Assembly: GCF_009495755.1 (NCBI RefSeq)
Contig: NZ_WIBJ01000030.1
Location: forward strand, 248,001-312,000
Length of the DNA: 64,000 nucleotides
Source of the DNA: Flavobacterium sp. LMO8
GTDB taxonomy: Bacteria; Bacteroidota; Bacteroidia; Flavobacteriales; Flavobacteriaceae
Direction of reading: 5' to 3'
Both the position numbers and the translations under genes were made by a program. How positions within the stretch are numbered: the stretch's first letter is position 1; each line of letters begins with the position of its first letter. Below are positions 4,844 to 63,472 of this stretch, in pieces. The notes beneath the pieces were generated by a model that was not told where the DNA came from, did not search any database, and worked only from the letters and a program-made list of their open reading frames with translations.

Positions 4844-6244
4844 TTATGATTGTAATTGAACTTGTTCTTGTGCTTGCACTTGAACCAGTTTTTTAGTTAA
4901 ATAATTAAAGCGAATATACAAAAATATCGCTGCAGCTGTTAATCCGGCTAAAAGTCCAATCCAAACACCAACGGCTTTTAACTCGGTTTCTAATCCTAAA
5001 TAAATAGAGATTGGAAATCCAATTACCCAATAGGCTACAAACGTAATATACATTGGGATTTTAGCATCTTGTAATCCACGAAGCGCTCCTAAAACCACTA
5101 CTTGCAAGCCATCAGAAATTTGAAAAACAGCTGCAACTAATAATAAATTGGCCGAAATTGCGATTACTTCTAGGTTTTCTGTTAGGTTTTTTGCATCGTT
5201 AATATCTACAAAAATATAAGGTAGAATTTTGTGTAAAGCCACAAATAGTATAGCAAAAACCACTTCGATAATTATCGTTAATAAGAAAATGGAAATCGCT
5301 ACTTTTCGTAAGGTAACATAATCATTCAACCCTTTTTGATTTCCAATACGAATCATTGCTGCAACACTCAATCCCATTGCAAACATGAAAGTAACAGATG
5401 CTAAACTCAACGCTACTTGATTTGCCGCTTGACTTGTAGTTCCAATCATTCCACACAACCAAATTGCTCCAGTAAATAATGCCACTTCAAAAAACATTTG
5501 CATTGCAGAAGGCATTCCAATTTTGATGATTTTTTGGTTGACCTCTTTTTTAATTTCTTTTAAGCTGAACCCTTTAAAATATGGATGAAATTTTGGTTTT
5601 AAATTCATCATATAATGCATAAAACCCAACATCACAAAACGAGAAGCAATAGTTCCAATAGCTGCTCCCACGATACCTAATTCTGGAAAAATCCAAATTC
5701 CATAAATCAAAAAATAGTTAATTACCACATTGGTAATATTTCCAATTATGGTTGCCCACATCGAATATTTAGTTTCACTCAAACCGTCGGCAAATTGTTT
5801 GTACGCTTGATACATAATTAGCGGAATCAGAGAAAAACCTACGATATCTAAATAGGGTTTCGCCATGTCAACAACTGCTGAAGGTTGCCCCATATAAGCA
5901 ATTAAAGGTTTTGCAAAAAAGATTAAAGTAAATAAAGCAACACCTAAAATCGTACACAAATACAATCCGTGATGAAACGCAGAACGACCACCCGCTACAT
6001 CATTTTTCCCATCGGATTCTGCAACCAAAGGTGTAATTGCGGTTGAAAATCCAATTCCTAATGACATGGCAATGAATACAAAACTGTTACCTAATGAAAC
6101 AGCTGCTAATTCCGTTGGACCTAATTTTCCTACCATTATGTTATCTACAATTCCCACTATGGTATGGCCTAACATCCCTAAAATAATAGGGTAGGCTAAT
6201 TTTAAGTTATAGGAAAACTCTTTTGTGTAATCGGAAAAAGTCAT
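4844..6244 (-). CDS. MATE-family multidrug and toxin exporter
   Basis: A 466-residue inner-membrane protein with about 12 hydrophobic segments in two homologous bundles, the normal MATE size. The N-terminal half has YPIILGMLGHTIVGIVDNIM and FSTAITPLVAE, typical of NorM/DinF-like Na+ or H+ antiporters. The second bundle starts near residue 240 (KIGMPSAMQMFFEVALF). The start is ATG 6244, because the upstream in-frame TTG at 6262 sits inside the promoter. The last residues (VQVQAQEQVQLQS) come from a low-complexity repeat that also occurs inside the methyltransferase gene at 7.5 kb. Substrate unknown. Confidence 0.92.
   Translation of the reverse strand: MTFSDYTKEFSYNLKLAYPIILGMLGHTIVGIVDNIMVGKLGPTELAAVSLGNSFVFIAMSLGIGFSTAITPLVAESDGKNDVAGGRSAFHHGLYLCTILGVALFTLIFFAKPLIAYMGQPSAVVDMAKPYLDIVGFSLIPLIMYQAYKQFADGLSETKYSMWATIIGNITNVVINYFLIYGIWIFPELGIVGAAIGTIASRFVMLGFMHYMMNLKPKFHPYFKGFSLKEIKKEVNQKIIKIGMPSAMQMFFEVALFTGAIWLCGMIGTTSQAANQVALSLASVTFMFAMGLSVAAMIRIGNQKGLNDYVTLRKVAISIFLLTIIIEVVFAILFVALHKILPYIFVDINDAKNLTENLEVIAISANLLLVAAVFQISDGLQVVVLGALRGLQDAKIPMYITFVAYWVIGFPISIYLGLETELKAVGVWIGLLAGLTAAAIFLYIRFNYLTKKLVQVQAQEQVQLQS
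4850..4887 (-). repeat. CAA-phased low-complexity repeat encoding the MATE C-terminal tail
   Basis: On the minus strand the repeat alternates CAA with another codon (CAAGTGCAAGCACAAGAACA onward). It closely matches 7539-7562, where the same frame and strand give QAQVQLQS inside the methyltransferase. I count about 20 of 24 bases shared over the best stretch. Confidence 0.7.
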
Positions 6245-7046: not shown

Positions 7047-7065
7047 AATGAAATTAGAATTTAGC

Positions 7066-7092
7066 CTCTCGACTTCGATCGAGATGACAATA
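7066..7092. repeat. Palindromic interspersed repeat upstream of the ABC gene
   Basis: CTCGACTTCGATCGAG followed by ATGACA. The core CTCGACTTCG-TCGA reappears inside the TrmH gene at 63250-63273, so it is an interspersed element. From memory, similar CTCGACTTCGCTCGAGATGACA elements are common between genes in Bacteroidota. Confidence 0.6.
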
Positions 7093-7142: not shown

Positions 7143-7982
7143 CTAAAACCGAATTCTTTCAAACAAATGCGAACTAATCGTTTTATTTGGATTAATTATA
7201 AAATGTTCTTTTTCTTGCTCGGCTCTAAAAAATACAATTCCCCACTGAAAAGTATCAATGGTAACGGTGACTTTTGGATGATTTTTTATGATTTTCCAAG
7301 CTTCTTCCATGTCCGCCGACCAATGAATATCATCAAAAATCCAAACGGAATCATTGCAAATAGTAGGAAGTAAGGCTTCAAAATAATCTAAAGTCGCTTT
7401 TTTGGAATGATTGCCATCGAAATAGATTAGGTGATGGGTGATAGGTGATGGGTGATGGGTTTTGAAATAACTTGAAAATTCAGTGTTTATAAATTCAATA
7501 TTTTGAAAATTTGAATTTGTCCCGAAACTTCGGGATTGCAATTGAACTTGCGCTTGCTTTTGCGTGTTTGGACAACCTTCTAGACTGATGATTTTTGCTT
7601 TTTCAGTTCCTAATGAAAGTGCTGAGGTTGCTAATCCTAAAGAAGTTCCAATTTCTAAAATATTTTTAGGTTGAAAATAACGAACAATTCTAAAAAGCAA
7701 TTCCGCATTTTTTGAGGAAATTCCAGCTGTTTGTGCGATTTTTGAAATTTCTCTTGTATTCGATTTAAAAACTCTTGAACCTGCACCGAAATCCGTTACT
7801 TCAATCGTATTTTTATTTTCTAAAAGCGATTTTCGGTACGATTTTACTATTTCGTATTCTGGATATTTTGTGTTGTCATAAAAACATTTCGTAACCAAAT
7901 CAAACACAAATGGCGAATGCACTCCATGTTCGTTTTTGGAGTGGAAAAGGAATTTTAGGTATGATTTTATTTGTTGTAGCAC
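7143..7982 (-). CDS. Class I SAM-dependent methyltransferase (O-methyltransferase-like)
   Basis: About 279 residues. The SAM-binding motif I is ILEIGTSLGLATSALSLG, followed by an acidic post-motif (IISLEG) and a later IYFDGNHSKKATLDYFE / WIFDDIHWS region typical of class I O-methyltransferases. The N-terminal HGVHSPFVFDLVTKCFY block is one I associate with Bacteroidota relatives. There is no ATG at the 5' end. GTG 7982 (MLQQIKSYLKF) fits best, with TTG 7994 or 8006 as alternatives lying inside a repeat. The gene carries three separate interspersed repeats in frame (7429-7460, 7521-7534, 7535-7562). Substrate unknown. Confidence 0.82.
   Translation of the reverse strand: MLQQIKSYLKFLFHSKNEHGVHSPFVFDLVTKCFYDNTKYPEYEIVKSYRKSLLENKNTIEVTDFGAGSRVFKSNTREISKIAQTAGISSKNAELLFRIVRYFQPKNILEIGTSLGLATSALSLGTEKAKIISLEGCPNTQKQAQVQLQSRSFGTNSNFQNIEFINTEFSSYFKTHHPSPITHHLIYFDGNHSKKATLDYFEALLPTICNDSVWIFDDIHWSADMEEAWKIIKNHPKVTVTIDTFQWGIVFFRAEQEKEHFIINPNKTISSHLFERIRF
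7429..7460. repeat. GTGATGG tandem repeat inside the methyltransferase gene
   Basis: Near-perfect copies of GTGATGG / GTGATAGG run in tandem. On the coding strand they give the HHPSPITHH tract. The reverse-complement type (CACCCAT) occurs inside the radical SAM gene at 26565-26598, where it yields the same SPITHH peptide. Confidence 0.7.
7521..7562. repeat. CCCGAAACTTCGGG palindrome fused to a CAA-phased repeat, inside the methyltransferase gene
   Basis: A 14-bp palindromic hairpin (7521-7534) is directly followed by the low-complexity tract matching the MATE C-terminal repeat. Together they encode QAQVQLQSRSFGT. This segment separates conserved parts of the SAM-binding fold and looks like an in-frame insertion. 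Confidence 0.65.
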
Positions 7983-7983
7983 T

Positions 7984-8076
7984 AAGTTTCTCAAAGTTTG
8001 GCACAAAGTAACACAAAGAATTTATAAGAAAAAAAACTTAGTGAAACTTTGTGTAAAACGTGGTGCTACATTGTGA
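7984..8076. repeat. ACTTTGTG-type interspersed repeat between the ABC-F and methyltransferase genes
   Basis: Alternating CAAAGT, ACACAAAG and ACTTTGTG words in both orientations fill the whole 98-base gap. They extend to the 5' end of the methyltransferase reading frame, which makes its start hard to fix. The structure could fold as a long imperfect hairpin. Confidence 0.6.
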
Positions 8077-8080
8077 AACT

Positions 8081-9943
8081 TTATTCCATTTTACTCGATA
8101 ATTCAAACCAACGCTCTTCTTTTTCTTCTAAAGACTGAATGATTTTTTGCAATTCATTTGCTTTCGCTTCAATTTTATCATCCGAAACTTTTCCGTCGGC
8201 GAATTCTTGTTCGATTTGTTTTTTATTGTATTCTAAATCTTTTATTTCTTTTTCAATTTTATTGAATTCCTTCTGTTCGTTAAAATTTAAACCGGTTGAA
8301 GCGGTTTGTTTTTCTTTCCAATTTGTTTTTTCAGTACTAACCGAATTCAAAACTTTTGGTTCTGCCGAATCTTCATAACTTCTAAAATCAGAATAATTTC
8401 CTGGGAAATCTTCAATCTCGCCTTCGCCTCTAAAAACAAACAAGTGATCTACAATTTTATCCATAAAATAACGGTCGTGACTCACCACTAACAAACAGCC
8501 TGGGAAATCTAATAAGAAACTTTCCAACACATTTAACGTTACAATATCCAAGTCATTCGTTGGTTCATCCAAAATCAAGAAATTCGGATTTTGAATTAAA
8601 ACCGTGCATAAATACAAACGTTTCAATTCGCCACCACTTAATTTTTCTACGAAATCGTATTGTTTTTTGGCATCAAATAAAAAGCGTTCCAATAATTGCG
8701 AAGCCGAAATAATTTTGCCTTTTGTCAACGGAATATATTCGCCATATTCTTTGATGATGTCGATTACTTTTTGTCCTGGTTTTGGATTGATACCACTTTG
8801 CGTGTAATACCCAATTTTAATCGTATCACCAATAATCACTTTACCCGAATCAGGTTGAATGGTTTGGGTTAAAATATTTAAGAAAGTCGATTTTCCTGTT
8901 CCGTTTTTACCAATAATTCCAATTCGTTCGCCACGTTGAAATGAATAACTGAAATCTTTTAAAATGGTTCTGTCAGGAAAGTCTTTGTTCAATTTTACCA
9001 TTTCGATAATCTTGCTTCCCATGCGCTCCATGTTGATTTCGAGCTCTACTACATTTTCTTTTCTTCGGCTTTCTGCTTTTTCTTTAATCACGTAAAAATC
9101 ATCTTGACGCGATTTTGATTTGGTAGTTCTAGCTTTTGGTTGACGGCGCATCCAAGCCAATTCTTTCACGAATAAGTTTTGCGCTTTGTCGATACTCGCA
9201 TTTTCAGAAGCCAAACGTTCTTCTTTTTTCTCTAAATAATACGAATAATTACCTTTGTATTGGTATATTTTTCCATTGTCTAATTCGATAATTTCGTTAC
9301 AAACACGTTCCAAAAAGAAACGGTCGTGCGTTACCATAAACAACGTGATATTTTCTTTTGCAAAATAATCTTCTAACCATTCAATCATCTCTAAATCAAG
9401 GTGATTGGTTGGTTCGTCTAAAATTAATAAATCAGGTTTGCTAATCAAAATAATGGCTAATGACAAACGCTTTTTTTGTCCACCTGACATGTTTTTGACT
9501 TTCATTTTCAAGTCTTCCAACTTCAGTTTGTACAAAATTTGCTTGAATTGCGTTTCAAAATCCCAAGCATTATGACGGTCCATATCATCAAAAGCTCTTT
9601 GATATGCTTCCTCATCATTCGGATTTTCTAAGGCTTTCTCGTAGCGTTCAATTACTTTCAGAATTTCATTATCCGAAGCAAAAATATTTTCCTCAATTGT
9701 TAATTCGTCTTGCAAATTATTGTTTTGCGACAAAAACGCCATTTTAATCTCTTTTCGAATCACAACCTGACCAGTATCGGGTTCATCCAAACCATTAATC
9801 ATGTTCATAATGGTGGTTTTTCCAGAACCGTTTTTAGCAATAAAAGCTATTTTTTGATCTTTGTTAATTCCAAAGGAAACGTCTTTAAAAAGAATACGTT
9901 CGCCGTATGATTTCGAAATATTTTCGACTGATAAGTAATTCAT
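8081..9943 (-). CDS. ABC-F family ATPase (Uup/EttA-like translation factor)
   Basis: A 620-residue soluble protein with two ABC domains and no membrane segments. Domain 1 has Walker A AKNGSGKTT (near 37), signature MSGGQKKRLSLA and Walker B LLILDEPTNHLD. Domain 2 has Walker A GKNGTGKST (near 350), signature LSGGELKRLYL and LILDEPTNDLD. A basic linker near 270-290 (RRQPKARTTKSKSRQ) is the P-site tRNA-interaction motif typical of ABC-F proteins, and a C-terminal coiled coil (about 555-618) matches Uup. These proteins act on ribosomes, for example rescuing stalled elongation. It may be co-transcribed with the methyltransferase downstream. Confidence 0.92.
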   Translation of the reverse strand: MNYLSVENISKSYGERILFKDVSFGINKDQKIAFIAKNGSGKTTIMNMINGLDEPDTGQVVIRKEIKMAFLSQNNNLQDELTIEENIFASDNEILKVIERYEKALENPNDEEAYQRAFDDMDRHNAWDFETQFKQILYKLKLEDLKMKVKNMSGGQKKRLSLAIILISKPDLLILDEPTNHLDLEMIEWLEDYFAKENITLFMVTHDRFFLERVCNEIIELDNGKIYQYKGNYSYYLEKKEERLASENASIDKAQNLFVKELAWMRRQPKARTTKSKSRQDDFYVIKEKAESRRKENVVELEINMERMGSKIIEMVKLNKDFPDRTILKDFSYSFQRGERIGIIGKNGTGKSTFLNILTQTIQPDSGKVIIGDTIKIGYYTQSGINPKPGQKVIDIIKEYGEYIPLTKGKIISASQLLERFLFDAKKQYDFVEKLSGGELKRLYLCTVLIQNPNFLILDEPTNDLDIVTLNVLESFLLDFPGCLLVVSHDRYFMDKIVDHLFVFRGEGEIEDFPGNYSDFRSYEDSAEPKVLNSVSTEKTNWKEKQTASTGLNFNEQKEFNKIEKEIKDLEYNKKQIEQEFADGKVSDDKIEAKANELQKIIQSLEEKEERWFELSSKME

Positions 9944-11919: not shown

Positions 11920-11984
11920 TTAAGTTTTTATTCAAAATGAAGATTCACTAATGTTAAAATTAAACTTTTAATTATATTCGCATC

Positions 11985-13109
11985 ATGCAACTATCCGTAA
12001 TCATACTTAATTATAATGTGCGCTTTTTTTTAGAGCAATGTGTTTTCAGTGTTCAAAAAGCATTGGAAGACATTGATGGAGAAATTATAGTTATTGATAA
12101 TGCTTCGTCCGATGATAGCTGCAAGATGATGAAAACCAAATTTCCGTCCATCAAACTCATTGAAAACGCAGCTAATTTAGGTTTTCCAAAAGGAAATAAC
12201 ATCGGAGTGGCTCAAGCCAAAGGAGAATATATTTGCATTTTAAATCCAGATACGGTTGTTGCAGAAGATACTTTTTCTAAAATTTTAAACTTCCAACTCG
12301 TAACACGTAACTCGCAGCTCGGAATAATCGGTTGTAAATTAATTGACGGCACTGGCAATTTTCTTCCCGAAAGTAAACGTGGCGTTCCAACTCCTTGGGT
12401 GGCTTTTACTAAGATTTTCGGATTGTATAAAATTTCAAATTATTTCGGGAAATATTACGCGCAACATTTATCTGAAAATGAATCTGGGAAAGTTGATATT
12501 TTAGTTGGAGCTTTTATGGTAATGAAGCGCGAATTATATTTGGAAGTCGGTGGTTTTGATGAAAATTGCTTTATGTATTCCGATGATATCGATTTGAGTT
12601 ATTTGGTTTTGAAAACTGGAAAATCGAATTATTACTTTCATGAAACTTCTGTAATTCATTATAAAGGAGAAAGTACGGTTCGCGATGGAACTTATATGAA
12701 ACGTTTTCGTGAAGCGATGCAGTTTTTCTATAAAAAACACTTCAAGAAATCATGGCTTTTTGATGTGATGATGCAAGTGGGAAGTTTCGTTTTTAGTCTT
12801 TTGAAGAAAAATCAGCAGAAGAATGAAGTCAGAATTATTGATGAATATGTCGTTTTTTCAAGAGAAAATTTAGAGTTAAATCTATCAAAAAAAGCAACTT
12901 ATTTGTCTGATTTTAATCAATTTGTAGGTCAGTCTCAAAAAAATCTTGAAATAATATTTGATACTACTACTTTTAGTTTTACTGAAATTATTACTTTTAT
13001 GCAGTTAAATAAGAGTAAAAATCTAAGTTTTAAGAATTATATTTCGAGTTCGAATTACCTAATTGGAAGCAATAATTCTAACGATAGAGGACAAATAATT
13101 TTATTGTAA
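11985..13109 (+). CDS. Glycosyltransferase family 2
   Basis: A 374-residue GT-A glycosyltransferase. The nucleotide-sugar-binding start is LSVIILNYNVRFFLEQC with IIVIDNASSDDS, followed by GFPKGNNIGVAQAKGEYICI and NPDTVV. The acceptor-side block GGFDENCFMYSDDIDLSY is typical of rhamnosyl/galactosyl transferases of this group. The family makes surface polysaccharide or glycolipid. It lacks membrane segments at the N-terminus. A repeat-like insertion (LVTRNSQLG, 12294-12322) lies near residue 105. The C-terminal 80 residues are poorly conserved in character and of unknown role. No other polysaccharide gene is adjacent. Confidence 0.88.
   Translation: MQLSVIILNYNVRFFLEQCVFSVQKALEDIDGEIIVIDNASSDDSCKMMKTKFPSIKLIENAANLGFPKGNNIGVAQAKGEYICILNPDTVVAEDTFSKILNFQLVTRNSQLGIIGCKLIDGTGNFLPESKRGVPTPWVAFTKIFGLYKISNYFGKYYAQHLSENESGKVDILVGAFMVMKRELYLEVGGFDENCFMYSDDIDLSYLVLKTGKSNYYFHETSVIHYKGESTVRDGTYMKRFREAMQFFYKKHFKKSWLFDVMMQVGSFVFSLLKKNQQKNEVRIIDEYVVFSRENLELNLSKKATYLSDFNQFVGQSQKNLEIIFDTTTFSFTEIITFMQLNKSKNLSFKNYISSSNYLIGSNNSNDRGQIILL
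12294..12322. repeat. AACTCGTAAC-type repeat inside the glycosyltransferase gene
   Basis: AACTCGTAACACGTAACTCG and a further CAGCTCGG form a short tandem of about 9-10 bases, encoding LVTRNSQLG. It looks like the interspersed low-complexity repeats elsewhere in the window, but no second copy of this exact sequence is present here. Confidence 0.45.
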
Positions 13110-16956: not shown

Positions 16957-17022
16957 ACTGATTAGTGAAAAGTAATTAGTGAATAGTTGCTAATTACTTT
17001 TCACTATTTACTAATCACTAGA
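16957..17022. repeat. GTGATTAGTGAAAA-type repeat with inverted arms
   Basis: CTGATTAGTGAAAAGTAATT is followed by an inverted counterpart (AATTACTTTTCACTATTTAC). It is the same family as 4503-4592 and 54412-54447. It fills the gap between the exonuclease and FAH genes and can fold as a hairpin of about 25 base pairs. Confidence 0.75.
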
Positions 17023-26368: not shown

Positions 26369-26376
26369 ACCTTTGC
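26369..26376 (+). promoter_or_regulatory. Bacteroidota -7 promoter element of the radical SAM gene
   Basis: TACCTTTG, exact consensus. It overlaps the in-frame TTG at 26373, which therefore cannot be the start. The TTG at 26391 is 15 bases downstream. Confidence 0.65.
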
Positions 26377-26390
26377 AAAAATCTCATCCC

Positions 26391-28604
26391 TTGAAAGATA
26401 TTCTATTAATCACTCCACCTTTTACCCAACTGAATACTCCGTATCCAGCAACGGCTTATATCAAAGGTTTTTTGAATACCAAAAACATTTCGGCTTACCA
26501 AATGGATTTAGGTATCGAAGTGATTTTAGAAATGTTTTCAAAGAAAGGTCTAATCGAGATTTTTTCACCCATCACCCATCACCCAACACCCAACACCCAA
26601 AGAATTTATTCCCTAAAAGACGATTACATCAAAACTATTGATTCAGTAATCGCTTTTCTTCAAGGGGAAAATCCGTCGTTAGCACGTCAAATTTGTTCAG
26701 GAAATTTCTTGCCTGAAGCCTCTCGTTTTGAGCAATTAGATGATATGGAATTTGCCTTTGGAACCATGGGAATGCAAGACAAAGCCAAACATTTAGCTAC
26801 CTTATATTTAGAAGATTTATCCGATTTTATTGTAGAATGTATCGATGAAAATTTCGGTTTCAGTCGCTATGCAGAACGTTTGGGAAGAAGTGCTAATTCG
26901 TTTGATGAGTTATACAATCATTTGCAAAACGAGTTAACATTTATTGACGAAATCACAATCAAAATTCTGAAACAGAGAATTGAAGAAGTACAACCAAAAT
27001 TGGTTTGTTTTTCCGTTCCTTTTCCAGGAAATTTATATAGCGCTTTTTGTTGCGCTCAATTTTTAAAAGAAAATCATCCTAATATAAAAATTGCAATGGG
27101 TGGCGGTTTTCCAAACACTGAATTGCGCGAATTAAAAGATAAACGTGTTTTTGAATTCTTCGATTTTATTACTTTAGATGATGGCGAACTTCCAGTTGAA
27201 TTACTTGTAAATCAAGTTTTAAATTCCCCTCATTTGGAGGGGTGTCCGAAGGACGGGGTGGTTTTTTCAGGTGAATTTAAGAGAACATTTTTATTAGAAA
27301 ACAACCAAGTCGTTTATAAAAATAACTCTACAAAATCAGATTACAAGCAAGCAGAAGTTGGTACGCCAGATTATTCTGATTTGTTGTTAGATAAATACAT
27401 TTCGGTCATAGAAATTGCCAATCCAATGCACAGTTTGTGGAGCGATGGTCGTTGGAACAAGCTCACCATGGCACACGGTTGCTATTGGGGAAAATGTACA
27501 TTTTGCGATATTTCTTTAGATTATATTAAGTTATACGAACCCATTGCTGCTAAAATTTTAGTAGATCGAATGGAAGAACTAATCGCTCAAACTGGCGAAA
27601 ACGGTTTTCATTTTGTTGATGAAGCGGCACCACCAGCGTTGATGCGTGAAGTAGCTTTGGAAATCATCAAACGAAAATTAGTGGTGACTTGGTGGACAAA
27701 TATTCGTTTTGAGAAAAGTTTTTCGGCTGATTTGTGTTTGTTGTTGAAAGAATCGGGTTGTATTGCGGTTTCTGGAGGATTAGAAGTGGCTTCTGACCGA
27801 CTTTTAGAATTAATCAAAAAAGGAGTAACCGTTGAACAAGTAGCACAAGTTACTCGAAATTTCACCGAATCAGGCATCATGGTACATGCGTATTTGATGT
27901 ACGGTTATCCAACGCAAACAATTCAAGAATCCGTAGATAGTTTGGAAATGGTGCGTCAATTGTTTGAATTAGGTGTTTTGCAAAGTGGTTTTTGGCATCA
28001 ATTTGCTATGACAGCGCATTCTCCTGTGGGCATGTTTCCAGATGAATTCGGAGTAATTCCGGAACAAAATGAAATAACATTTGCCAATAACGACATCAAT
28101 TTTAAGGACAAAACCGGAATCAATCACGACAAGTTTAGTTTCGGATTAAAGAAATCGTTATTTAATTATATGCACGGAATCTGTTTCGATTACGACCTGC
28201 AAGATTGGTTCGATTTTAAAATTCCAAAAACAAAAATTCCTGCTGATTTTATTTATAATTGCCTCCAAAAAGAACACAGTTTTAATACGAAATCCAATTC
28301 GAAAATTATTTGGTTAGGAGGAAAGCCTCAAACCGAAGTATTCACTAAATCGAAAAAAGGAAATTCTTGGGAAATGATGAAATTAACCTTTCATAATAAA
28401 ACGCAAACTTTTGATATTTCTCTCAATTCAGAGGAAGGAAAATGGTTAATGGCTACTTTAGATAAAATTTCGGTTTACGCAGAAAATAAAATAACTTTTT
28501 CTCAATTAAAATTAGACTTTGAAACACATTTTGACGATTTTGAATTGTTTTGGTTTAGTAAACCAATTCTTATTCTTAGAAATTCGATGCTGTTAACTTT
28601 ATAG
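26391..28604 (+). CDS. B12-binding-type radical SAM protein
   Basis: A 737-residue enzyme with an N-terminal cobalamin-binding-like region (LKDILLITPPFTQLN; PKLVCFSVPFPGNLYSAF; AMGGGFPNTELREL) and a radical SAM core near 365-590. The cluster motif is HGCYWGKCTFCDISLDY, with three Cys in a C-x4-C-x2-C order. Later parts show ISGG-like 'AVSGGLEVASDRLLELIKKG' and YLMYGYPTQT. The substrate is unknown; relatives methylate or rearrange carbon centres. It starts with TTG 26391. Two repeat-derived tracts sit in frame: SPITHHPTPNTQ (26565) and PHLEGCPKDGVVF (27223). Confidence 0.86.
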   Translation: MKDILLITPPFTQLNTPYPATAYIKGFLNTKNISAYQMDLGIEVILEMFSKKGLIEIFSPITHHPTPNTQRIYSLKDDYIKTIDSVIAFLQGENPSLARQICSGNFLPEASRFEQLDDMEFAFGTMGMQDKAKHLATLYLEDLSDFIVECIDENFGFSRYAERLGRSANSFDELYNHLQNELTFIDEITIKILKQRIEEVQPKLVCFSVPFPGNLYSAFCCAQFLKENHPNIKIAMGGGFPNTELRELKDKRVFEFFDFITLDDGELPVELLVNQVLNSPHLEGCPKDGVVFSGEFKRTFLLENNQVVYKNNSTKSDYKQAEVGTPDYSDLLLDKYISVIEIANPMHSLWSDGRWNKLTMAHGCYWGKCTFCDISLDYIKLYEPIAAKILVDRMEELIAQTGENGFHFVDEAAPPALMREVALEIIKRKLVVTWWTNIRFEKSFSADLCLLLKESGCIAVSGGLEVASDRLLELIKKGVTVEQVAQVTRNFTESGIMVHAYLMYGYPTQTIQESVDSLEMVRQLFELGVLQSGFWHQFAMTAHSPVGMFPDEFGVIPEQNEITFANNDINFKDKTGINHDKFSFGLKKSLFNYMHGICFDYDLQDWFDFKIPKTKIPADFIYNCLQKEHSFNTKSNSKIIWLGGKPQTEVFTKSKKGNSWEMMKLTFHNKTQTFDISLNSEEGKWLMATLDKISVYAENKITFSQLKLDFETHFDDFELFWFSKPILILRNSMLLTL
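26565..26598. repeat. CACCCAT tandem repeat inside the radical SAM gene
   Basis: CACCCAT and CACCCAA copies in tandem encode SPITHHPTPNT. The reverse complement of the same repeat occurs in the methyltransferase gene at 7429-7460, so this is a second intragenic copy. Confidence 0.65.
27223..27267. repeat. CCCCTCATTTGGAGGGG-type repeat inside the radical SAM gene
   Basis: A hairpin (CCCCTC ATTTG GAGGGG) followed by TGTCCGAAGGACGGGGTGG and a T-run. It has the look of an intergenic palindromic element; I recall similar ones between genes of Flavobacteriaceae. Here it is in frame and encodes SPHLEGCPKDGVVF. Confidence 0.55.
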
Positions 28605-41777: not shown

Positions 41778-41849
41778 GGCCCGTTCGTCTATCGGTTAGG
41801 ACGCCAGGTTTTCATCCTGGTAAGAGGGGTTCGATTCCCCTACGGGCTA
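41778..41849 (+). tRNA. tRNA-Glu(UUC), copy 1
   Basis: A full cloverleaf: acceptor GGCCCGT / ACGGGCT, anticodon stem CCAGG / CCTGG, loop TTTTCAT with anticodon TTC (Glu), and T-arm GGGG-TTCGATTC-CCC. CCA is not encoded. Identical to the three copies downstream. Confidence 0.95.
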
Positions 41850-41881
41850 CAAGTATTGAGGTTACAAAAGAATAGGTTAAT

Positions 41882-41953
41882 GGCCCGTTCGTCTATCGGT
41901 TAGGACGCCAGGTTTTCATCCTGGTAAGAGGGGTTCGATTCCCCTACGGGCTA
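41882..41953 (+). tRNA. tRNA-Glu(UUC), copy 2
   Basis: Identical to copy 1, shifted by exactly 104 bases. The linker of 32 bases is also identical between copies. Confidence 0.95.
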
Positions 41954-41985
41954 CAAGTATTGAGGTTACAAAAGAATAGGTTAAT

Positions 41986-42057
41986 GGCCCGTTCGTCTAT
42001 CGGTTAGGACGCCAGGTTTTCATCCTGGTAAGAGGGGTTCGATTCCCCTACGGGCTA
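41986..42057 (+). tRNA. tRNA-Glu(UUC), copy 3
   Basis: Identical to copy 1, again with a 104-base period. Confidence 0.95.
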
Positions 42058-42089
42058 CAAGTATTGAGGTTACAAAAGAATAGGTTAAT

Positions 42090-42161
42090 GGCCCGTTCGT
42101 CTATCGGTTAGGACGCCAGGTTTTCATCCTGGTAAGAGGGGTTCGATTCCCCTACGGGCTA
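42090..42161 (+). tRNA. tRNA-Glu(UUC), copy 4
   Basis: Identical tRNA sequence. The bases after it differ from the linker, marking the end of the tandem array. Confidence 0.95.
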
Positions 42162-42221
42162 CAGAATTAGTTGTAAATAAGTTTTATAAAATAATAATTG
42201 GTGTCTCTGTTATTATTTTAT

Positions 42222-62680: not shown

Positions 62681-63472
62681 TTAAAATCCACGTTGTCTTT
62701 TAGCTTCAAAAAGTAAAATAGCAGCAGCAACTGAAACATTCATAGAATCGATTTCGCCTTGCATTGGAATGATGATGTTTTTAGTGCTTTCTGTTCTCCA
62801 TTTTTCGGATAAGCCTGTGGCTTCTGTTCCAACCACTAAAGCAGTAGGAGTGGTGTAATTTTGAGTATGGTATTCAGTAGAATCTTGTAAAGTAGCGGAA
62901 TAAATATTAATGTTATTTTCTTTCAAATAATCAATTACTTCTTCAGTAGTTCCAACAGCAATTTGTCGGGTAAACAAACAACCAACACTAGAACGAACGA
63001 TGTTTGGATTGTATAAATCGCTTTTTGGATTGGCGATAATTACAGAATCAATGTTTGCAGCATCAGCTGTTCTTAAAATGGCACCAACGTTTCCGGGTTT
63101 TTCTAAGGATTCTCCAACTAATATTAGTGGGTTTTTAGAAAGTTTTAAATCGGATAAGGCTAACGATTTTGTTTTGGCAATGGCTAAAATGCCTTCGGTA
63201 GTATCGCGATAGGCTAATTTTTGATATACCTCTTTTGAAATTTCGATAATCTCGACTTCGCTCGATTTGACAAGGTTATTTATTTCTCTATTCGAAATGA
63301 TTTCGGGTAAAAATAGAATGGTTTCTAATTCATAACCTCCTTTTAATGCCAATTCAATTTCGCGTTTTCCTTCAATTAAAAAAGTGCCCGTTTGCTTACG
63401 AACTTTTGCTTTTTCTTGCAATTGGACTAACGATTTAATAAACGGATTTTGAACCGAGGTGATTTGTTTCAT
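62681..63472 (-). CDS. TrmH/SpoU-family RNA 2'-O-methyltransferase
   Basis: A 263-residue SPOUT methyltransferase. It starts MKQITSVQNPFIKSL, with the substrate-binding L-domain KVRKQTGTFLIEGKREIEL, followed by LVGESLEKPGNVGAILRTAD, ALVVGTEATGLSEKW and IIPMQGEIDSMNVSVAAAIL, the knotted SAM site. It methylates rRNA or tRNA ribose. An in-frame repeat-derived tract (LVKSSEVEIIEIS, 63250-63273) interrupts the N-terminal part. ATG 63472 is chosen because the longer frame begins in the promoter. Confidence 0.92.
   Translation of the reverse strand: MKQITSVQNPFIKSLVQLQEKAKVRKQTGTFLIEGKREIELALKGGYELETILFLPEIISNREINNLVKSSEVEIIEISKEVYQKLAYRDTTEGILAIAKTKSLALSDLKLSKNPLILVGESLEKPGNVGAILRTADAANIDSVIIANPKSDLYNPNIVRSSVGCLFTRQIAVGTTEEVIDYLKENNINIYSATLQDSTEYHTQNYTTPTALVVGTEATGLSEKWRTESTKNIIIPMQGEIDSMNVSVAAAILLFEAKRQRGF
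63250..63273. repeat. CTCGACTTCG-type repeat inside the TrmH gene
   Basis: TCTCGACTTCGCTCGATTTG followed by ACAA. Matches the intergenic palindrome at 7066-7092 at most positions. It is in frame and encodes LVKSSEVE. Confidence 0.6.

What the first reader, a model, noticed from the sequence alone, without database searches (positions are those of the whole stretch)
7429..7562. Three different interspersed repeats inserted in frame within one methyltransferase gene
Within 134 bases the gene holds a GTGATGG tandem, a CCCGAAACTTCGGG palindrome and a CAA-phased tract, all in the open frame. A fourth (ACTTTGTG) repeat occupies its 5' end. The repeats encode HHPSPITHH, RSFGT and QAQVQLQS, which sit between conserved SAM-domain motifs and look like insertions tolerated in surface loops. 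This recalls the palindromic elements inserted in Rickettsia genes, but the sequences are unrelated as far as I can tell.
Basis: partly seen in the sequence, partly recalled or inferred. Interest (0 to 1): 0.6.

Follow-up and report, generated by a model that had tools for sequence, protein, structure and literature searches.

The report
Short repeats colonising protein loops, Flavobacterium
A methyltransferase gene of a Flavobacterium carries a 16-letter DNA palindrome that was inserted in frame, next to a loop written as a 7-letter DNA repeat whose wording differs between species; relatives hold other short repeats in the same loops, so tiny repeats seem to keep rewriting tolerant parts of conserved proteins.

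Summary
The three tracts are real, but they are three different things.

(1) The palindrome TCCCGAAGTTTCGGGA (7520-7535, RSFGT) is a true in-frame insertion, +12 nt. Among the orthologues examined it is at this site only in the window's genome and two close relatives. The genome holds 13 such palindromes. Three others lie in conserved genes: KDO transferase, UvrC, GT9 heptosyltransferase (absent from 29/29, 29/29 and 28/29 orthologues). Other species carry it at other loops of this methyltransferase.

(2) The GTGATGG tandem is no recent insertion. The loop before LIYFDGNH is a 7-nt array in most of 80 orthologues (lag-7 identity 0.59, other lags 2-13 at most 0.32). The unit differs between species, yet the loop has 15 residues in 61 of 80.

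(3) The CAA tract is an ancestral helix.

The ACTTTGTG repeat lies upstream, between genes.

A GT2 glycosyltransferase and a radical-SAM gene in the window also have heptad loops. The palindrome behaves like Rickettsia palindromic elements, but at 16-18 nt fails the length test. Its mover is unknown: Y1 (RAYT-type) transposases correlate moderately with copy number but are undetected in the richest genome. Heptad units are not shared within genomes more than between them, which favours local slippage.

The parts
7143..7982 (-). class I SAM methyltransferase gene (Methyltransf_24; COMT/TrmR-like fold); likely GTG start at 7982-7980 (inferred from alignment with the Met of orthologues)
7430..7460 (-). 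7-nt tandem repeat (CCCATCA on the coding strand), loop THHPSPITHH before LIYFDGNH; different heptads at the same place in other species
7520..7535 (-). 16-bp palindrome TCCCGA-AGTT-TCGGGA (18 nt with its flanking A and C, 7519-7536), inserted in frame, net +12 nt, encodes SRSFG
7533..7556 (-). CAA-phased tract QAQVQLQS; ancestral helix with hexanucleotide period, not an insertion
7980..8085 (.). upstream gap with ACTTTGTG-type octamers in inverted arrangement between the ABC transporter-family (ABC-F-like) gene and the methyltransferase; outside the coding region
12288..12323 (+). second gene of the same kind: family 2 glycosyltransferase ORF 11964-13109, loop NFQLVTRNSQLG written in heptads; other species hold other heptads or other inserts here
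26562..26600 (+). third gene of the same kind: radical SAM ORF (B12-binding match below the curated cut-off), loop FSPITHHPTPNTQ with the same CCCATCA unit as the methyltransferase loop

Best explanation
Tolerant loops of conserved Flavobacterium proteins are repeatedly rewritten by two separate processes. (a) A dispersed ultra-short palindrome (consensus ATCCCGA-AGCT-TCGGGAC, 16-18 nt; a longer TCCCGATAGCTATCGGGA class exists) is copied into new places. At most readable sites it adds 12 nt net, so it stays in frame, and copies inside genes survive in loops. Shown: lineage-specific presence, four genes in one genome, net +12. Inferred: that copies descend from one another through a single-stranded hairpin, moved either by an unidentified enzyme acting in trans or by replication template switching. 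(b) The neighbouring loop is an old 7-nt tandem array that evolves in concert by slippage or unit conversion. The unit changes between species, while reading frame and loop length hold the total constant or allow steps of three units (21 nt). The CAA tract belongs to neither process. No function is required; this is tolerated DNA.
For: Palindrome: at this site in 3 of 97 tree rows (L001 = the window's gene, L074, L075); the empty site in near relatives is 12 nt shorter. Own-genome copies in three more genes, named by Pfam: KDO transferase, 29 of 29 aligned orthologues lack it, all by 4 residues; UvrC, 29 of 29 lack it, 23 by 4 residues and 6 distant ones by 3; GT9, 28 of 29 lack it, 26 by 4 residues and 2 distant ones badly aligned. 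Other copies lie in other loops of the same methyltransferase in other species. It is the most over-represented palindrome (arms 6, loops 0-8, 3 or more G+C in the arm) in 1.48 Mb, 20 against 0.03. Heptads: lag-7 identity 0.590 against 0.244-0.324 for the other lags from 2 to 13, codon-shuffle mean 0.326 with largest 0.348 in 300, synonymous resample 0.441 with largest 0.456 in 100; lag 7 is best of lags 4-13 in 70 of 80, 63 of 80 reach p<0.01 singly. Loop identity between species 0.48 against 0.79 just downstream, within-loop lag-7 0.69. Loop length 15 in 61 of 80, with +7 aa (three heptads) in L134 and L140. Same period in the GT2 loop, n=42, lag-7 0.55, other lags from 2 to 13 at most 0.30 (no shuffle run).
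Against: No enzyme or donor was identified. Not every site is +12: L084 is +6, non-coding L147 is +13, L095 and L124 are 11 to 13 by comparator, and L017, L095-13767 and L121 are too diverged to read. The same site is occupied in distant species (GT9 in the own genome and G015; the 2-oxoacid dehydrogenase acyltransferase site in L081, L133 and, by eye, L162; methyltransferase site A in 7 rows), which could mean gene-segment exchange or old insertion and loss rather than repeated insertion. In the G004 sample 0 of 15 N4 copies lie in a long ORF. Seventeen of 80 heptad loops do not reach p<0.01. The tree is weak: 44 of 94 inner branches are open. A looser test found the own heptad unit elsewhere in its own locus in 5 of 68 cases against 1.5% of other loci, which leans towards some sharing within genomes.
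Confidence: 0.7

Rival explanations
1. The palindrome is a REP-like element mobilised by a RAYT / Y1 (HUH) transposase.
For: Hairpin-forming, dispersed, with a non-complementary base pair at the stem foot (A..C in 28 of 54 contexts), which gives the hairpin a direction. Y1_Tnp is common in the genus, 2 matches in the own genome. Over the 37 same-genus genomes palindrome copies and Y1_Tnp matches correlate: Spearman 0.42, P 0.009; 0.34, P 0.037 with genome size taken out (counts).
Against: G004 (85 copies, 100% complete) and G029 (28 copies, 99%) have 0 Y1_Tnp matches; G022 has 8 matches and 0 copies. No fixed GTAG-like tag in the flanks. 16-18 nt is below the 20-40 bp given for REPs (PMC3733652, start of abstract in the search listing). 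The correlation ignores kinship and counts terminators among the palindromes.
Confidence: 0.2
2. Template switching or hairpin-primed replication errors create the palindromes and heptads in place, with no mobile element.
For: Heptad units are not shared between two loops of one genome more than between genomes (513 and 756 of 5000 permutations reach the observed value); a slippage explanation for the heptamer excess is in print (PMC4692102, passages read). Quasi-palindrome correction makes perfect palindromes (PMC6649704, passages read).
Against: A local error would not write the same TCCCGA..TCGGGA at unrelated sites and species; the centre N4 is not derived from the host (P 0.34).
Confidence: 0.22
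3. Homologous exchange of gene segments between species spreads loops that already hold repeats; few true insertions happened.
For: Occupied sites coincide in distant species; L086 carries a foreign-looking loop (SNCKLNTEHCQ) inside the near clade.
Against: Own-genome copies in UvrC, KDO transferase and the methyltransferase site B have no occupied counterpart among the distant orthologues examined.
Confidence: 0.18
4. The tracts are ordinary protein-level features (variable loops, Gln-rich helix) and the DNA repetition is incidental.
For: True for the CAA tract: 48 of 80 orthologues have at least 3 Gln in the 14 codons, lag-6 identity 0.45.
Against: Lag-7 identity exceeds both codon shuffles and synonymous resamples of the same peptides; palindromes are exact at DNA level.
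Confidence: 0.05

Closest known systems
Rickettsia palindromic elements (RPE; described in PMC10969869, passages read)
   Same: Dispersed palindromes inserted in frame in unrelated conserved genes, tolerated in the protein, also present between genes.
   Different: RPEs are about 150 bp in the passage read; here 16-18 nt and +4 aa, in Flavobacterium; no sequence relation was tested.
Heptanucleotide repeats of bacteria (TAACTGA in Beggiatoaceae, Cyanobacteria and Bacteroidetes, PMC4679880, abstract and sections 10 and 15 read; GGGAATC-type in Xanthomonas and Nostoc, PMC4692102, passages)
   Same: Period of exactly 7 nt; indels in 7-nt steps between related strains (PMC4679880, section 10).
   Different: Those studies treat mainly intergenic repeats (some in ORFs, PMC4679880 section 15) of one chosen unit; here one coding loop keeps the 7-nt period across a genus while the unit changes and the length stays in frame.
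REP / RAYT systems (PMC3733652, start of abstract in listing)
   Same: Short dispersed hairpin; moderate correlation with Y1 transposases.
   Different: Shorter, no tag, also inside genes, Y1_Tnp undetected in the richest genome.
Coding palindromes of Nematomorpha mitochondria (PMC6649704, start of abstract and passages read)
   Same: Palindromes embedded in coding sequence, gained and lost between species.
   Different: Up to 284 bp and mitochondrial; whether they share one sequence I did not read.

Membership tests
Rickettsia palindromic element | in-frame insertion into unrelated conserved genes | tested here: met
   Methyltransferase, UvrC, KDO transferase, GT9 in one genome
[quoted passage not shown]
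   16-18 nt, net +12 nt
Rickettsia palindromic element | sequence homology to RPE families | not tested
   no RPE sequence was fetched or compared
REP mobilised by RAYT | Y1 transposase goes with copies | tested here: inconclusive
   Spearman 0.42 over 37 genomes, but G004 85 copies and 0 matches, G029 28 and 0, G022 0 copies and 8 matches
REP mobilised by RAYT | GTAG or CGTC tag beside the hairpin | tested here: not met
   no fixed tetranucleotide in 54 flanks
Heptanucleotide tandem repeats | 7-nt period enriched over neighbouring periods | tested here: met
   92 arrays of period 7, 5 of period 8, 31 of period 6; period 5 has 62, of the order of its shuffled level (sample centred on this gene); loop lag scan
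Heptanucleotide tandem repeats | unit shared across the genome | tested here: inconclusive
   MTase vs radical SAM loop n=23, P 0.10; MTase vs GT2 n=42, P 0.15; looser test 5 of 68 loci against 1.5%
Intrinsic terminator | G+C-rich hairpin followed by T-run, outside genes | tested here: not met
   This copy lies inside the ORF with no T-run; 35 of 89 contexts of the motif fall outside the insertion class, many of them terminator-like

The most novel reading that the evidence does not exclude
Flavobacterium harbours ultra-short mobile hairpins of 16-18 nt that insert with a nearly fixed net gain of 12 nt, re-use the same landing points in conserved proteins of distant species, and act together with 7-nt arrays as a continuing source of new loop sequence: a class of mobile DNA smaller than any I know of in bacteria (recalled, not searched).
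Probability: 0.3. Interest if true: 0.78.

Novelty: new variant of a known kind. Interest (0 to 1): 0.57.

Why it matters
It shows, with empty sites and many orthologues, that tiny dispersed DNA repeats rewrite protein loops outside Rickettsia, at a scale (4 residues) that protein alignments would pass off as ordinary indels. The heptad loop is a natural experiment: the DNA period is kept while sequence and peptide change, which makes the old question of why bacterial repeats favour 7 nt testable inside a reading frame. If the palindrome is mobile, its 12-nt step and recurrent landing sites should lead to the enzyme or replication process that moves it.

Tried and rejected
Three insertions: rejected for the CAA tract and recast for the heptad. 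RAYT: I first took as showing no link because of G004, G029 and G022; on recount the 37 same-genus genomes show a moderate correlation, so it stays a rival. Centre tetranucleotide kept from the host (exact in L127/L093 and L085/L083): rejected by permutation, 26 of 60 matches against 24.5 expected, P 0.34; one event per site, 19 of 44, P 0.38 (comparators chosen by eye). Genome-wide vocabulary of heptads: not supported by the pairwise test although the looser test hinted at it.

Literature: the literal palindromes were sought (1 paper, on guide-RNA methods, unrelated by its abstract start) and six literal strings of the other dispersed elements (0 papers). Searches by words: no listed title or abstract start reports coding palindromes or coding heptads in Flavobacterium. 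These cover the held open-access library only; most listed papers were not opened.

Rows dropped: the tree left out L027 and L128 (pattern failed), L028 and L030 (chosen, distant), and nine rows taken as duplicates of named loci; eight agree in contig length, but L029 does not agree with L112 and was left out in error. In one search L027, L028 and L030 were left out. In one search the T-run filter also removed the KDO-transferase copy (L041). Of 480 relatives found in genome contigs only the best 80 were returned. The AlphaFold model is moderate (pLDDT 66.6).

Full report
What is there. The gene at 7143-7982 on the minus strand is a class I SAM methyltransferase: Pfam Methyltransf_24, E 1.1e-10; the AlphaFold2 model (pLDDT 66.6, pTM 0.72) matches TrmR and COMT-like O-methyltransferases. 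The window's genome is a Flavobacterium by its relatives: the nearest named ones by this protein are Flavobacteria bacterium BAL38 (97%) and F. cheniae, F. aquaticum, F. sasangense, F. lacisediminis (88-89%).

Orthologues. The protein has two length hot spots, the loop after GTSLGLATSALxLG ('site A') and the loop before LIYFDGNH ('site C'), and a third place ('site B') after the QxQLQ helix, where RSFGT sits.

The CAA tract is old. QAQVQLQS aligns with QCQLQLQ, AKNQLQL and the like in the genus; the 14 codons hold 3.1 Gln on average and at least 3 in 48 of 80; the DNA has a period of 6 (lag-6 identity 0.45, other lags from 2 to 11 at most 0.33). In the model it lies in helix 132-144. It is not an insertion.

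The palindrome is a real insertion. TCC CGA AGT TTC GGG A stands at site B only in the window's gene (L001), L074 and L075 (the last with one change) among 97 tree rows. The empty site in L077, L083, L076, L078 and L084 is 12 nt shorter, that in L081 6 nt shorter because L081 has two residues of its own. The same palindrome stands in the same gene at other loops of other species: at site A, read TCC CGA, in L020 (SRSVG), L024 (SRSLG), L142 and L084 (SRNFG), L151 (SRSVG, one arm changed), decayed in L022 and L025; and in site C of L024 (SRDFG) and L127 (another frame, PETSG). L084 is +6, not +12. Parsimony needs 7 changes for site A palindromes in 7 rows, 6 for site C inserts of several kinds in 6 rows, 2 for site B in 3 rows; the tree is weak, with 44 of 94 inner branches open.

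It is dispersed. The own genome holds 13 CCCGANNNNTCGGG, reversed control 0, and 12 of the 16-mer; in the 60 genomes searched the 16-mer ranges from 0 to 85 per genome, control 0 throughout. Part of these look like terminators with a T-run; 54 of 89 distinct contexts fell in the AGCT-centred, T-run-free class. Among palindromes with arms of 6 and loops of 0-8 in 1.48 Mb, TCCCGA with loop 4 deviates most from expectation, 20 against 0.03; 4 of the 20 are in this gene, on which the sample is centred, and two look like terminators. In G015, TCCCGA-N(0-14)-TCGGGA has 108 places (control 2); about half are listed, and nearly all of those are N4 or N6 (TCCCGATAGCTATCGGGA). The 54 contexts show a preference beyond the palindrome: A before and C after (either strand) in 28, and complementary flanks in only 3, against 20 of the other 35. 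As single-stranded DNA the 18-mer folds at -5.6 kcal/mol.

Four genes in one genome. Of the eight AGCT-class copies that I count in the own genome four are in conserved genes: this methyltransferase, a GT9 heptosyltransferase (SSRSVGTQ), a KDO transferase (QSRSFGTK) and UvrC (DPEVSGLK, another frame), named by Pfam. Each was aligned with 29 orthologues from 37 relatives. KDO transferase: all 29 lack it by 4 residues. UvrC: all 29 lack it, 23 by 4 residues, 6 distant ones by 3. GT9: 26 lack it by 4 residues, 2 distant ones are badly aligned, and G015 (L217) has SSRSVGT at the same place. In sampled loci of rich genomes 6 of 10 N4 copies of G015 and 0 of 15 of G004 lie in an open frame of at least 180 codons; some of those frames are doubtful (the 875-aa frame of L164 has no Pfam match). 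In relatives the palindrome also lies in the 2-oxoacid dehydrogenase acyltransferase, MATE tail and GT2 genes.

The heptad. The site C loop is a tandem of 7-nt units in most species: CATCACC here, AACCTAC, CAAGACC, CGACTTT, CACTGAA, AACCCGA, CAATTAT and so on. Over 80 orthologues lag-7 identity in the 42 nt is 0.590, lag 14 0.536, lag 21 0.471, while other lags from 2 to 13 lie between 0.244 and 0.324; codon shuffles give 0.326 (largest of 300: 0.348) and synonymous resampling 0.441 (largest of 100: 0.456); 63 of 80 reach p<0.01 singly. In the first 27 orthologues the signal peaks at this loop along the gene. Between species the loop is 48% identical against 79% just downstream, but 69% identical to itself at lag 7. 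The array is in register with the conserved CTA-ATT codons; phases A-[CA]-[CT]-[TC] are shared and three are free. Length is 15 residues in 61 of 80 (60 by the pattern, L086 by eye); L134 and L140 have 22, i.e. three more heptads, and L029 has 21 residues, nine heptads, more than the usual. Within the near clade the right end is common and units to its left are degenerate (TTAACCTTTCACC) or homogenised (L074) at constant length. I read this as concerted evolution of a resident array, not an insertion.

Not only this gene. A family 2 glycosyltransferase 4 kb away has the same pattern before GIIGCKLIDG (n=42, lag-7 0.55; no shuffle run); in other species that loop holds longer inserts that look like dispersed palindromic elements (for example L103, L106, L114, L091; their dispersed nature is recalled, not counted here). 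A radical SAM protein (26373-28604; B12-binding match below the cut-off) has SPITHHPTPNTQ with the same CCCATCA unit here, other heptads or CHIERSRD elsewhere; the DNA for CHIERSRD resembles the intergenic element at 7060-7090. Period-7 arrays are 92 in the sample, against 5 of period 8, 31 of period 6, and 62 of period 5, which also has many in shuffles. At another cut-off 33 arrays lie in the site C loop, 23 more in ORFs of at least 200 codons (8 of them a second heptad site of this same gene, FQVSSFK), and 35 elsewhere. Unit sharing between two loops of one genome is not significantly above that between genomes, though a looser test leans the other way.

Mechanism. Shown: in-frame gain of 12 nt by the palindrome at lineage-specific sites; unit change at constant length for the heptad. 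Inferred: the palindrome spreads as a hairpin copied from existing copies, by an unknown enzyme or template switching; the heptad changes by slippage and unit conversion under frame selection. Y1 transposases: copy numbers correlate moderately (Spearman 0.42, P 0.009; 0.34 after genome size, P 0.037; kinship not corrected), but the richest genome, G004, has none detected, nor has G029, while G022 has 8 and no palindrome. They are therefore neither shown nor excluded as movers. The centre is not host-derived.

Known kinds. As a behaviour the palindrome resembles Rickettsia palindromic elements (PMC10969869, passages read), but it fails the length feature and no homology was tested. Heptamer excess in bacteria is known (PMC4692102, passages, which cite a 2007 study; PMC4679880, abstract and sections 10 and 15; PMC6749651, passages), mostly between genes. 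I found no report of either inside Flavobacterium genes in the listings.

Noticed in passing
window 41778-42162: Four tRNA-Glu (ttc) genes in a perfect 104-bp tandem array. In G007 (L050) three units spaced 104 bp carry the TCCCGAAGCTTCGGGA palindrome next to a tRNA-like GTTCGAATCC.
   Followed up: partly
window 7060-7090 and 63251-63280: CTCGACTTCG(A/C)TCGA-type palindromic elements ending in GATGACA or TTTGACA, similar to the inserts coding CHIERSRD in L183/L184 and LEMTN in L105.
   Followed up: partly
window 4847-4882: C-terminus of the MatE ORF is QVQAQEQVQLQS; relatives L074, L081 and L086 hold the TCCCGAAGCTTCGGGA palindrome in frame in this tail.
   Followed up: partly
window 16961-17020: Two neighbouring arrays of 14-nt period, apparently heptads in opposite orientation (ATTAGTGAAAAGTA and CTAATTACTAATCA).
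   Followed up: no
L032, L040, L059, L168, L172, L180: By eye, the palindrome lies inside ACTTTGCG-type repeats in several places, a nesting of one short repeat in another.
   Followed up: no
L112, L120, L133, L134, L140, L149, L150 methyltransferase site A: A 10-residue insert of the form LExKTxxAKLN in one clade, another short in-frame insert at the same loop.
   Followed up: partly
L086 methyltransferase: Segment from QCQMQLQ to TEHCQ looks borrowed from a distant Flavobacterium lineage, possible intragenic recombination.
   Followed up: no
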